Assembly: GCA_022772475.1 (NCBI GenBank)
Contig: JALEZQ010000080.1
Span: 1-38,487 of the forward strand
Direction: 5' to 3'
From: Bacteroidales bacterium
GTDB taxonomy: Bacteria > Bacteroidota > Bacteroidia > Bacteroidales > Bacteroidaceae
DNA length: 38,487 nucleotides
The position numbers and the translations under genes are program-made. Of the stretch, positions 3,090-35,045 are shown piece by piece; positions within the stretch are counted from its first letter, which is position 1, and every line of letters starts with the position of its first letter. The notes under the pieces are model-generated. The model did no database searches. It was not told the DNA's origin and saw only the letters and a list, made by a program, of their open reading frames with translations.

Positions 3090-3115
3090 TTTGGAGAGTG
3101 TGTCTTTCGTGAGGA

Positions 3116-3123
3116 CAAATGTA
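3116..3123 (-). promoter_or_regulatory. -7 box for malQ
   Basis: The minus strand reads TACATTTG, a match to the Bacteroidota -7 consensus TAnnTTTG, about 27 bases before the chosen malQ ATG. No clear -33 TTTG is seen at the usual spacing, so this is a partial match. Confidence 0.5.
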
Positions 3124-3197
3124 AACATTTTTTCGCTTTTGTAAGGTCTGTTTAGCAGATTTTCTATTTCCCCACCTGCTGATAGGGACTGATAGGG

Positions 3198-3896
3198 ACG
3201 ACAACGAAACATATTGTGCCCGTTGTTCAGGTTGTCGTGTATTATATTTTGGACGACAACAGGAACAACAATGACAACGTTGATTGTTGTTCTCGTTGTT
3301 CAGGTTGTCGTAAATTATATTTGGACGACAACAGGAACAACAATGACAACGTTGATTGTTGTTCTCGTTGTTCAGGTTGTCGTGTATTATATTTGGACGA
3401 CAACAGGAACAACAATGACAACATAGATTGTTGTTCTCGTTGTTCAGGTTGTCGAGTATTATATTTGGACGACAACAGGGACAACAATGGCCACATAGAT
3501 TGTTGTTCCCGTTGTTCAGGTTGTCGTGTATTATATTTGGACGACAACAGGAACAACAATGGCCACATAGATTGTTGTTCTCGTTGTTCAGGTTGTCGTG
3601 TATTATATTTGGACGACAACAGGAACAACAATGGCGACATAGATTGTTGTTCTCGTTGTTCCGGTTGTCGTGTTATATTTGGACGACAACAGAGACAACA
3701 ATGACCTCATAGATTGTTGTTCTCGTTGTTCAGGTTGTCTTGTATTATATTTGGACGACAACAGGAACAACAATGACCACATAGATTGTTGTTCTCGTTG
3801 TTCAGGTTGTCGTGTATTATATTTGGACGACAACAGGGACAACAATGGCCACATAGATTGTTGTTCTCGTTGTTCAGATTGTCGTGTCTATATTTG
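3198..3896. repeat. 72-bp tandem hairpin array (10 units)
   Basis: Ten copies of CAGGTTGTCG or a close variant start at 3228, 3301, 3373, 3445, 3517, 3589, 3661, 3731, 3803 and 3875. The spacing is 73, 72, 72, 72, 72, 72, 70, 72 and 72. Each unit is a dyad: a left arm ACGACAAC...AACAACAAT and a right arm ATTGTTGTT...GGTTGTCGT around a short variable centre (gacaacgtt, gccacatag and so on). The first unit (3198-3238) is shortened and degenerate. Between hairpins is an AT-rich linker containing TATATTTG, present exactly in nine of the ten linkers; the first reads TATATTTTG. The array lies between the divergent malQ and VOC genes. Because 72 is a multiple of 3, several frames stay open and would encode 24-residue Cys-rich repeats, but I do not regard them as genes. 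Confidence 0.9.
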
Positions 3897-3993
3897 AAGG
3901 TTATAGCAGAGAGTTGTTCTGTCGTTAGCGTGTGCAGCAGACGATTTATCTACAAATTGGCGTTTTTGTAGATAAATCGTCTGTTTGGGCCGA

Positions 3994-4025
3994 TTTGCAT
4001 TTTGCCTTTCGTTGTTGTATCTTTG
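3994..4025 (+). promoter_or_regulatory. Consensus Bacteroidota promoter inside element A
   Basis: TTTG at 3994-3997, a 20-bp spacer, then TATCTTTG at 4018-4025. This fits the -33/-7 consensus with ideal spacing, and it is conserved in copy B with the same 20-bp spacer. Transcription would start near 4032, only about 12 bases before a terminator-like hairpin. Confidence 0.7.
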
Positions 4026-4043
4026 CATAGCAAGTTTAGATAG

Positions 4044-4066
4044 GGCCCTCTCGTAGGGCCTTTTTT
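4044..4066 (+). terminator. Terminator-like hairpin in element A
   Basis: GGCCCT (4044-4049), loop CTCGT, AGGGCC (4055-4060), then six T residues (4061-4066). It has the form of an intrinsic terminator and is conserved in copy B, where the stem is longer. Confidence 0.7.
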
Positions 4067-4418
4067 GTTGTCGATAAAGCGGTTATACTGTTTGGGCGAC
4101 AGGAAAAACAGTCGCCCAAACCGTAAAGACGGTCGCCCAAATCGTGTCTCCGGTTTGCGCGACTGTGTTTTTCGACCTTTGAATAGGCTTTTTCAATGCT
4201 CAAACCGTTAAACATTCCTAAATCTATCGTTATTTTTGTCGGCGAAGAAACAGACGATTTATCTACCAAAAGGGGCTTTTGCCAGTGATTTTATCTATTG
4301 CGTATTTTGGCTTGTGCAGCCCAATCGGCCGTCGGTCCTACTGCACAGGAACAATGCGTCTTATAGTTTTTGCGCATTTCTTACCCCTATGGTTAGCCCC
4401 GATTGTCGTAGGAATTTA

Positions 4419-4426
4419 TAACTTTG
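4419..4426 (+). promoter_or_regulatory. -7 box upstream of the VOC gene
   Basis: TAACTTTG matches TAnnTTTG and would start transcription near 4433, giving a leader of about 60 nt before the ATG at 4493. The -33 element is not obvious. The 150 bases between element A and this box hold nothing else I recognise. Confidence 0.5.
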
Positions 4427-4492
4427 TAGGCAGTTTGGTAAATAGGGACGTCACGCTCCTCACTTTGCCAACATCACAAAACCTCTATCCCT

Positions 4493-4879
4493 ATGCAGCC
4501 AACGACCCCTTACGCACGTTTCGACCACTTCAACTTCAACGTGGCCGACCTTGAGAAAAGCATCGCCTTCTATGCCGACGCCTTGGGCCTGACCCCCTGT
4601 GGTGAGATTGTCCATCCCGACGGCGATTTCAAGATAGTCTATCTCGGCGACGGCCAGACCGACTTCCGCCTCGAACTGACGTGGCTGCGCGAACATCCCC
4701 AGCGCTACGATCTGGGCGAGTGTGAGTTTCACCTCTGTGTGCGCGTCCCCGGCGACTATGATGCCGCCCGCGAGCGCCACCGCCAGATGGGCTGCGTATG
4801 CTTCGAGAACCAGGAGATGGGGCTCTACTTCATCGAAGACCCCGACGGCTACTGGATAGAAGTGCTGCCGCAGAAGTGA
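4493..4879 (+). CDS. VOC family protein (glyoxalase I-like)
   Basis: A protein of 128 residues with the two beta-alpha-beta-beta-beta halves of the vicinal oxygen chelate fold. The four metal-ligand positions of glyoxalase I can be picked out: His12 (DHFNFNV), Glu61 (RLELTW), His80 (EFHLCVRV) and Glu123 (YWIEVLP). The closing segment FIEDPDGYWIEVLPQ is typical of lactoylglutathione lyase-like proteins. Glyoxalase I isomerises the thiol adduct of methylglyoxal, but VOC proteins of this size also include epimerases and dioxygenase relatives, so the substrate is open. It is followed after 61 bp by phosphoglucomutase on the same strand and may be co-transcribed with it. Confidence 0.85.
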   Translation: MQPTTPYARFDHFNFNVADLEKSIAFYADALGLTPCGEIVHPDGDFKIVYLGDGQTDFRLELTWLREHPQRYDLGECEFHLCVRVPGDYDAARERHRQMGCVCFENQEMGLYFIEDPDGYWIEVLPQK

Positions 4880-18121: not shown

Positions 18122-18384
18122 GGTAATTGTGAAGGAAAGTCGGTGTGTGAAAAAAGAAAATTATTCTGCGAAATCCCGATTTTGTAGAAAAATCTTCTGT
18201 TTTTCGCCAATCGGCGAAATGCCTTCTTTTGTGAAAGTTTAACGGTTCGCACCCATTTTTGTCGCTCCACGACCACGGAATCCACACTCTCCCTAACCGG
18301 AGACACGCTTTGGGCGACAGGAAAAACTGTTTGGGCGACAGTTTTTCCTGTCGCCCAAACAGTTTAACCCCCTTTGCGACAATG

Positions 18385-18410
18385 AAAAAGGGCCCCGCCG
18401 AGGGCCCTTT
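18385..18410 (-). terminator. Terminator-like hairpin in element B
   Basis: AAAGGGCCC (18387-18395) and GGGCCCTTT (18402-18410) form a perfect 9-bp stem with a 6-nt loop; on the minus strand it runs into five T residues. Because A/T flank both sides it could act in both directions, ending both the MscS and glycosyltransferase transcripts. Confidence 0.75.
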
Positions 18411-18424
18411 CCTATATTGCAAGG

Positions 18425-18456
18425 CAAATATACAACATTTCGGAACGAAATGCAAA
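18425..18456 (-). promoter_or_regulatory. Consensus promoter inside element B
   Basis: On the minus strand: TTTG (18456-18453), 20-bp spacer, TATATTTG (18432-18425). The architecture is identical to copy A, although the spacer sequences differ. The terminator-like hairpin begins 14 bases after the -7 box. Confidence 0.7.
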
Positions 18457-18581
18457 TCGGCCTCCGCAGACGATTATTCTGTGAAATCGGCAAAACGCAG
18501 AATAATCTTCTGCGGCGGAGACAGTGGCAAGAACAACGAGACGACGCTTATGGCGAAGGGATCGCTGATGAGCCGGCTGAC

Positions 18582-34589: not shown

Positions 34590-34666
34590 CGCCATACCGC
34601 TTTAACGCCCAAGCAAATCCAGTGCCAATTTCACCATCCGCCCCATTTCTGCCGCAGGCAGTGCCA

Positions 34667-34925
34667 TTCCCAAGGGCTGGGAATACGATTCCCAAGGGCT
34701 GGGAATTTGATTCCCAAGGGCTGGGAACATGATTCCCAAGGGCTGGGAATACGATTCCCAAGGGCTGGGAATTTGATTCCCAAGGGCTGGGAACATGATT
34801 CCCAAGGGCTGGGAACACGATTCCCAAGGGCTGGGAATTTGATTCCCTGCGGCTGGCACTTCGAGTACCTGCGGCTGGCACTTCGATTGCCCGCGGCCGG
34901 CAATGCGATTGCCAAGGGCTGGGTG
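34667..34925. repeat. 22-bp palindromic tandem repeat with 66-bp higher-order period
   Basis: Twelve copies start at 34667 and then every 22 bp exactly (34689, 34711, 34733, 34755, 34777, 34799, 34821, 34843, 34865, 34887, 34909). The first eight carry the core TTCCCAAGGGCTGGGAA, whose ends TTCCCA and TGGGAA are complementary; the last four are diverged (CTGCGGCTGGC and similar). The spacers between cores cycle tacga, tttga, catga, tacga, tttga, catga, cacga, tttga, so the array grew by 66-bp units of three. It lies between the DUF4105 promoter and asnB. No gene is inside it. Confidence 0.92.
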
Positions 34926-34941
34926 TCTTTTCCTGATTTCA

Positions 34942-35045
34942 ATAGACACTATTGTGCTACATGGTCTGAAACCATAGACACTTGTGTTTCAGCCATACGG
35001 TTTTCATAGACACCATGTAGGTAAACGTGCTGAATCTGTGGACAC
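34942..35045. repeat. Boxes ATAGACAC spaced exactly 32 bp, with nested inverted repeats
   Basis: ATAGACAC occurs at 34942, 34974 and 35006, and a related GTGGACAC at 35038, each 32 bp apart (about three helical turns). The sequence between boxes is not repeated. Overlapping them are an outer inverted repeat CTACATGGT (34957-34965) with ACCATGTAG (35012-35020), and an inner one CTGAAAC (34966-34972) with GTTTCAG (34986-34992). The position, between two divergent genes, suggests a regulatory region. The rest of the gap up to 35276 shows no gene; it becomes AT-rich from about 35187. Confidence 0.6.

What the first reader, a model, noticed from the sequence alone, without database searches (positions are those of the whole stretch)
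3938..4270. Duplicated 333-bp interspersed element (3938-4270 plus; 18184-18515 minus) with conserved promoter, terminator-like stem and palindromes
Seen: two intergenic copies, opposite orientation, almost equal length (333 and 332 bp), with the same order of parts. Identical blocks include GGCCGATTTGCATTT (15 nt), a 23-nt block (4087-4109 against 18341-18363) and CGTGTCTCCGGTT (13 nt). Both copies keep TTTG-N20-TATnTTTG although the spacer differs, and both keep a GGGCCC hairpin with a T run although its sequence differs, which looks like selection for function. Both ends carry related CAGA(C/A)GAT motifs. Inference: a non-autonomous mobile element, or a family of structured RNA genes, with no gene inside. 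I know no named element that fits.
Basis: partly seen in the sequence, partly recalled or inferred. Interest (0 to 1): 0.78.

Follow-up and report, generated by a model that had tools for sequence, protein, structure and literature searches.

The report
Evenly spaced species-specific DNA arrays
The two copies belong to a large family of short gene-free DNA elements scattered through a Bacteroidales chromosome, each holding a precisely phased repeat array whose letters differ between species, which suggests binding sites for a still unknown factor.

Summary
The copies align with 233 identities. The host genome G000 (a draft Bacteroidales genome) has 84 places matching a model of the core; 44 match over nearly its whole length, promoter to array. 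A second element type (396 bp, TTGCACAC at both ends) shares the internal array but has other ends. The array is one inverted arm plus direct arms in steps of 21 bp. Other species of the genus, and one of another genus, show the same order of parts with another arm sequence; in some, arrays stand alone. Places avoid each other: no gap under 8 kb among 26 in G000 (7.1 expected), 5 under 10 kb among 79 in G212 (21.5 expected). Between sister species the array changes least. Best reading: binding arrays for an unknown species-specific factor, spread by MITE-like vehicles, probably acting at chromosome level (inferred). Rivals: selfish element with target immunity; RNA or terminator element; uptake-sequence analogue. 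Rfam has no match at gathering score in the window, and the papers searched describe nothing equal.

The parts
3938..3983 (+). left-end palindrome CAGACGATTTATCTAC...GTAGATAAATCGTCTG of copy 1
3994..4025 (+). promoter-like block TTTG-N20-TATCTTTG of copy 1
   Evidence: alignment
4043..4066 (+). terminator-like hairpin with T-run of copy 1
4090..4100 (-). array, inverted arm of copy 1
4111..4121 (+). array, first direct arm of copy 1
4132..4142 (+). array, second direct arm of copy 1 (one letter off the consensus arm)
4205..4213 (+). conserved CCGTTAAAC block of copy 1
4251..4296 (+). right-end imperfect palindrome of copy 1
18184..18515 (-). copy 2 of the type-1 element (subfamily A); its right-end palindrome runs on to about 18154
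18425..18456 (-). promoter-like block of copy 2
18385..18407 (-). terminator-like hairpin with T-run of copy 2
18350..18360 (+). array, inverted arm of copy 2 (on the other strand from the element)
18329..18339 (-). array, first direct arm of copy 2
18308..18318 (-). array, second direct arm of copy 2
18237..18245 (-). conserved CCGTTAAAC block of copy 2
18467..18512 (-). left-end palindrome of copy 2
18154..18199 (-). right-end imperfect palindrome of copy 2

Best explanation
The finding is two of 84 places in this genome that carry a short array of sequence-specific sites: arms of about 10 bp, one inverted and two or more direct, in steps of 21 bp, so on one face of the helix. Here the array rides on gene-free, MITE-like vehicles of at least two types with different ends; in relatives it sits behind the same promoter-hairpin unit or stands alone. 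Shown here: copy number, architecture, phasing, one arm shared within a genome and different arms between species, slow change of the array in place, upkeep of the match between the inverted and first direct arm, and avoidance of close neighbours. Inferred: a trans-acting, species-specific factor (most simply a DNA-binding protein) reads the arms; the vehicles spread the arrays; selection or immunity keeps them apart; the sites act at chromosome level (topology, domain borders or nucleoid anchoring, much as BIME sequences are thought to act; that comparison is recalled). The promoter plus terminator would make a 40-50 nt RNA or shield the array from transcription; its role is not established.
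For: R1 over the genome alone: 144 matches, 84 places. Arm GTCGCCCAAAC 141 times, reversed control 1. Two element types with different ends share the arm. Successive arms are 21 bp apart in 37 of 38 (G000), 37 of 41 (G052, other four 42), 26 of 27 (G014, other one 42). Same order of parts with other arms: 17 copies read in G014, 20 in G212, one or two loci each in G050, G030, G051, G045, G026; standing-alone arrays: three loci in G005, one each in G040, G001, G043. Spacing: 0 of 26 gaps under 8 kb against 7.1 expected, 0 of 5000 simulations as low; G212, 80 places, 1 gap under 5 kb against 11.5, 5 under 10 kb against 21.5. Eight orthologous copies: array 4 substitutions in 496 columns, flanks 76 in 3049, Fisher p 0.008. 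Inverted arm against first direct arm 13 mismatches in 160, against second 45 in 160; sign test p 7.8e-5.
Against: No binding protein was identified. 34 of 58 genomes of the genus have no R1 match at E 0.01: dispensable, or arms unrecognisable. Places are mostly not shared beyond the sister species, apart from one possible case (G030 L100 and G000 L028). The spacing null is uniform placement, without a control repeat; over the whole G212 scaffold the variation of gaps (cv 1.06) is not below random because of one 320-kb gap. The slow change of the array rests on 4 substitutions. The number of pair types in the hairpin is not above shuffles (14 against 14.1), and most double changes follow one subfamily split. 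Upkeep of the inverted pair also fits an RNA or ssDNA hairpin or palindrome correction. The behind-gene bias of G000 was not seen in the few G212 loci that could be scored (left neighbour reading toward the element in 6 of 15).
Confidence: 0.5

Rival explanations
1. A purely selfish, non-autonomous mobile element family without host function. The phased arms are binding sites of its transposase or recombinase (as the 22-bp sites at Tn7 and Mu ends, recalled), and the avoidance of neighbours is target immunity.
For: Several kinds of ends, palindromic or repeated; no counterpart of L143 at the matching G000 place and a type-2 element at the L149 place; patchy presence over the genus and high copy in one genome of another genus; nested insertions of another repeat.
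Against: Arrays stand alone in other species; two types with different ends share one arm, so one enzyme cannot easily serve both; the array is central, not terminal; at least nine copies are shared with the sister species and the array is the best-kept part there. No matching enzyme was found, but only PF01797 and PF00589 were looked for in G000.
Confidence: 0.28
2. A family of structured RNA genes or transcription terminators: the promoter makes a short hairpin RNA, and the array, transcribed from either side, forms a second (bidirectional) terminator hairpin.
For: Promoter-like block and hairpin with T-run kept over nine species in A3, hairpins more stable than most shuffles in 8 of 8 (z -1.5 to -5.3); upkeep of the inverted arm pair; position behind genes in G000.
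Against: Direct arms have no partner yet keep sequence and 21-bp phase; the promoter changes as fast as flanks in place (8 in 360); arm letters are uniform within a genome although a stem needs only pairing; no Rfam match at gathering score. The first hairpin could not be tested for covariation because its register differs between subfamilies.
Confidence: 0.12
3. An uptake-sequence analogue: the arm is the species 'dialect' by which cells recognise DNA of their own kind, as in Neisseriaceae.
For: Species-specific arms, inverted pairs as described for DUS (passages of PMC3630211); even spacing is reported for uptake sequences (recalled).
Against: 141 exact arms in G000 against thousands of DUS copies per genome; arms lie in arrays with fixed phase, which single uptake sites do not need.
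Confidence: 0.05

Closest known systems
BrickBuilt and other MITEs of Porphyromonas gingivalis (PMC4596501; abstract, section 5 and part 1 of section 7 read)
   Same: Intergenic, gene-free, tens of copies, Bacteroidales, internal short-period repeats, promoter activity, limited host range.
   Different: BrickBuilt has tandem 23-nt direct repeats (1 to 22.8 units) between leader and tail with IS5-type ends; here 21-bp arms include an inverted arm, a promoter-hairpin unit precedes them, ends vary by subfamily, and the arm is shared by two element types.
REPINs and tagged REPs with RAYT transposases (PMC3116915, PMC3733652; abstracts read)
   Same: Inverted doublets, extragenic, mostly behind coding regions, some species-specific, many copies, hairpins.
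   Different: REPIN doublets are described as randomly distributed in extragenic space; here close neighbours are avoided. No GTAG or CGTC tag is conserved by the arms; the RAYT found in this genome sits among another palindrome. Phased direct arms and a promoter-hairpin unit are extra.
BIME and gyrase- or IHF-binding intergenic repeats of enterobacteria (recalled)
   Same: Intergenic mosaic repeats with binding sites and a proposed role in DNA topology.
   Different: Other sequence and arrangement; no binding shown here.
DNA uptake sequences of Neisseriaceae (PMC3630211; passages read)
   Same: Species dialects, inverted pairs near terminators.
   Different: Thousands of copies there, 141 exact arms here, and in arrays.
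Correia-type elements and plasmid iterons (recalled)
   Same: Small promoter-bearing elements; 17-22-bp phased binding repeats.
   Different: No IHF or replication function tested.

Membership tests
MITE | terminal inverted repeats and target duplication | tested here: inconclusive
   Palindromic ends in subfamily A; CATTTTCC on the left with GGAAAATG on the right in L018 and L026 (L013 near); direct repeats in subfamily C and type 2; no clean target duplication or empty site.
MITE | autonomous parent with the same ends in the genome | not tested
   Only PF01797 and PF00589 were searched in G000; DDE transposases were not.
REP/REPIN | GTAG or CGTC tag beside a 20-40 bp palindrome | tested here: not met
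   No such tag is conserved beside the arms in the alignments of G000 or G014, read by eye.
REP/REPIN | RAYT gene flanked by the same repeat | tested here: not met
   The RAYT-like gene in L088 is flanked by GTAGTACCACGTCC.. palindromes; one type-2 element lies near it. Other genomes were not searched for RAYTs.
BrickBuilt | tandem 23-nt direct repeats with leader, tail and IS5-type ends | tested here: not met
   Period 21 with an inverted arm; ends unlike the TIRs listed in the paper.
Known RNA family | Rfam match at gathering score | tested here: not met
   0 in the window; three matches far below gathering score in six further loci.
DNA uptake sequence | thousands of copies | tested here: not met
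   141 exact arms in G000.
DNA uptake sequence | preferential uptake of DNA carrying it | not testable with these tools
   needs transformation assays
Phage or plasmid element | presence in viral, phage or plasmid records | tested here: not met
   Three array patterns of the G000 arm in viral contigs, copy 1 and one G212 copy against phages and plasmids: no match.

The most novel reading that the evidence does not exclude
Some Bacteroidales chromosomes carry an undescribed network of 80-100 near-evenly spaced, 21-22-bp phased binding arrays, each species with its own arm dialect co-evolving with an unknown protein; gene-free mobile vehicles seed the arrays and selection spaces them, a dispersed site system for chromosome organisation.
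Probability: 0.3. Interest if true: 0.9.

Novelty: new variant of a known kind. Interest (0 to 1): 0.72.

Why it matters
Short intergenic repeats in bacteria are usually seen as selfish or as local regulators. A repeat whose inner array is shared by different vehicles, changes dialect between species, changes least in place and keeps its distance from its own kind points to a chromosome-wide role, in an order common in animal guts. What spaces such repeats (immunity, selection or function) becomes a question that a pull-down, an insertion map and a contact map can settle.

Tried and rejected
Leader of a downstream gene: rejected for most of the 37 copies scored, since the right neighbour reads toward the element in 20 of 28 called cases; L036, a truncated copy upstream of a gene that reads as ribosomal protein S12 (my reading, no family search), is an exception. 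Coding content: longest frames 59 and 44 codons in the window copies. Rfam: none at gathering score in the window. Phage, plasmid or viral origin: no match. REP membership: not met. Replichore strand bias in G212: best split 23 against 23.5 in shuffles; the scaffold has N runs and several skew changes, so origin and terminus were not placed.

Empty-site test: of four G052 copies whose flanks were sent to G000, L143 had only its left flank found, with no type-1 copy behind it; L149 had a type-2 element in its place; the L145 flanks lay on two contigs; L144 met a contig start. No target duplication was seen. Shared places between species: 0 of 3 G005, 1 of 20 G014, 2 of 20 G212 and 3 of 14 other loci had a flanking protein match among the 61 G000 loci compared; all are 38-54% identical except G030 L100 with G000 L028 (78% over 128 aa), which may be a shared place. 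Covariation of the first hairpin: not measurable, its register differs between subfamilies; the RNAalifold consensus found only the array hairpin, with a weak covariation term of -0.16. An FRT- or loxP-like site was considered from the arm order and not pursued.

Rows left out: alignment A1 used 30 and A2 31 of the 37 family-1 copies (truncated, contig-cut or near-duplicate copies dropped). One search found the hairpin in 51 copies (46 distinct; 32 from G000, 19 from G052) and in 12 of the 20 type-2 copies given (10 distinct, 4 double changes against 1.8 in shuffles). One search had 49 copies, 32 distinct. G014: 17 of 20 fetched stretches matched the motif used; G052: 19 copies in 20 stretches. 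A first spacing test on an incomplete list (19 gaps, none under 8 kb, 5.4 expected) was replaced; contigs C26 and C30, of unknown length, were left out there. G212: 91 of 98 matches used, 80.

Full report
What was checked. The window is contig C62 of a draft genome, G000 (2,382,665 bases, 104 contigs, 86.8% complete). The close relative G052 has contigs of the same lengths as CAMGHE01, titled uncultured Bacteroidales bacterium.

Copy number. A BLAST of copy 1 gives 101 pieces in the genome. A covariance model of the core (R1: 31 copies, array hairpin as structure), run on this genome alone at E 0.01, gives 144 matches that collapse to 84 places on 56 contigs. Forty-four of them match the model over its whole or nearly whole length at 75 bits or more; 38 of these were read, one of which (L036) has lost the array. 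Of 69 places on contigs of known length 20 lie within 1 kb of a contig end against about 5.6 expected, so repeats break the assembly here and the true number is probably higher.

Anatomy of type 1. An end; a promoter-like block TTTGC-N-TATCTTTGC (the Bacteroidota consensus is recalled); 15-20 nt; a G+C-rich hairpin with a T-run; an array; a variable stretch of about 60 nt; CCGTTAAACTTTCCTAAA; an end. Core length hardly varies although columns average 74% identity in A1. The ends differ (grouping by eye): subfamily A has 46-bp palindromes (CAGACGATTTATCTAC...); B has CATTTTCC on the left and GGAAAATG on the right in L018 and L026; C has GATAGAAAAC-like blocks in direct order on both sides.

Type 2. 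The array hairpin alone (up to 3 mismatches) has 66 places, control 0. Of the places fetched from that list and, 21 belong to another element: TTGCACAC at both ends in direct order in 20 of 21, 388 bp apart in 15 of those 20 (the others 387, 389, 389, 390 and 401), no promoter-like block seen. It shares with type 1 the arm GTCGCCCAAAC and a GTTAA-type block in another place. So the array is a module of its own.

The array. In type 1 one arm is inverted and two to three are direct. Successive direct arms are 21 bp apart in 37 of 38 pairs in G000, 37 of 41 in G052 (the other four 42) and 26 of 27 in G014 (the other 42); in G212 the distance from promoter to right end takes the values 269/270, 291/292, 314/315 and 336 in the 17 of 20 copies where the right end was found. 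Two helical turns per step fit a protein on one face of DNA. The exact arm occurs 141 times in G000 (reversed control 1), 35 times in G052 and twice in G014. The inverted arm matches the first direct arm better (13 mismatches in 160 positions) than the second (45 in 160); closer in 22 distinct copies, further in 3, 7 ties, p 7.8e-5. Pair counts agree in part: double changes 20 against 9.8 in shuffles and 70 against 27.2, but pair types are not above shuffles (14 against 14.1) and most double changes follow one subfamily split. An RNA or ssDNA hairpin, a dyad protein site or palindrome correction would all give this.

Other species. R1 finds matches at E 0.01 in 24 of 58 genomes of the genus, G000 included (at most 50 scored per genome). 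Read by eye, they show the same order of parts with another arm: TCCGATGTTGTT in G014 (17 copies), GTCCCAGGGATTG in G051 and G045, CCTTGCGCCACTTG in G030, GTTACTGACAG in G026 (one locus each); two G024 loci show promoter and hairpin with no array seen. In G005 (three loci), G040, G001 and G043 (one each) arrays of about 65-75 bp stand alone; two G005 loci share 63 bp of array and nothing else, the third shares only 16 bp with one of them. A sequence-only model of promoter plus hairpin (R2: 23 sequences) matches 79 of 201 genomes of the family at E 0.001, many by short pieces that may be ordinary promoters; G212, of another genus, has 98 matches at E 0.01, and the 20 read show promoter, hairpin and a 22-bp array around GTTCGGCCCAAACGA. 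In G052, 19 further copies carry arms ending AAGTTGT or AGGTCGT in place of AAACCGT: a dialect in the making.

Spacing. In G000, 26 neighbour gaps on 20 contigs of known length include none under 8 kb; uniform placement with contig-end copies held fixed expects 7.1 (0 of 5000 simulations as low; under 10 kb 2 against 8.7). In G212, 91 places on a 3,266,225-bp scaffold have one gap under 5 kb against 11.8 expected; left of a 320-kb gap 5 are under 10 kb against 21.5 and the variation of gaps is 0.72 against 0.98. Over the whole scaffold, with that gap, variation is not below random. The scaffold has N runs and several skew changes. The G000 test mixes both element types. No control repeat was measured, and the null was not limited to intergenic DNA.

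Constraint in place. For eight copies shared by G000 and G052: array 4 substitutions in 496 columns, leader and hairpin 4 in 311, promoter 8 in 359, array-to-GTTAA stretch 13 in 486, flanks 76 in 3049. Array against flanks p 0.008, against the neighbouring stretch p 0.02. The array is the best-kept part; the promoter is not special. The numbers are small.

Mobility. At least nine copies are shared with G052, so many are old. L143 of G052 has no type-1 copy behind the matching left flank in G000, the L149 place holds a type-2 element in G000, and the L145 flanks lie on two G000 contigs. Places are mostly not shared with other species. Another repeat, GGGTGTGTCAAAATG..., sits at the hairpin position of copies in G052. 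Two Y1 transposases and four phage-integrase matches (one below cut-off) were found in G000, none tied to the family.

Context. With a simple codon-based gene caller, the left neighbour reads toward the element in 16 of 23 called cases and the right neighbour in 20 of 28 in G000. In 18 short G212 loci this bias was not seen: 6 of 15 on the left, 5 of 8 on the right.

Interpretation. Arms shared by two element types, dialects between species, exact phasing, slow change and avoidance of neighbours together favour a trans-acting factor that reads the array, with a role that depends on distance along the chromosome. Which factor and which role are inference. The selfish reading with target immunity explains spacing and ends but not stand-alone arrays or an arm shared between types, unless several enzymes share one immunity factor. 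The RNA reading explains promoter, hairpin and inverted pair but not the rest.

Literature. Seen: PMC4596501 (abstract, section 5, part 1 of section 7), PMC3116915 and PMC3733652 (abstracts and outlines), PMC3630211 and PMC8040213 (passages); others as listings only. Searches of an open-access library listed no paper that describes this family by title or abstract start; subscription papers and supplementary tables were not searched.

Noticed in passing
L088 (G000 C56:14077-17083): A RAYT-like Y1 transposase (249 aa) lies between clusters of GTAGTACCACGTCCATTGACGTGGTAC palindromes; related palindromes border several family-1 copies.
   Followed up: partly
L045 about 3100-3258; L044 about 4370-4510 and its tail: A repeat with ends GGGTGTGTCAAAATG/CATTTTGACACACCC sits at the terminator hairpin of family-1 copies in G052, as if it targets it.
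   Followed up: partly
window 3168-3959: Nine register copies of a 72-bp tandem repeat directly before copy 1; similar TTGTTGTT.. stretches border other copies.
   Followed up: no
window 34600-34945: Eleven register copies of a 22-bp tandem repeat.
   Followed up: no
G212 C1 2517160-2836745: A 320-kb stretch without any copy; the two stretches sampled in it have lower G+C, one with N runs. Integrated element or scaffold artefact.
   Followed up: no
L087 (G000 C45:124-3465): An IS200-like transposase of 151 aa with TTTACCGGACAGCAATAA-type repeats around it, close to a family-1 copy.
   Followed up: no
L036 (G000 C101:6700-9800, reverse strand): A copy truncated after the first arm, a few hundred bases upstream of what reads as the ribosomal protein S12 gene.
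   Followed up: no
L145 (G052) against L166 and L167 (G000): The flanks of one G052 copy lie on two different G000 contigs, possibly a rearrangement at the element.
   Followed up: no
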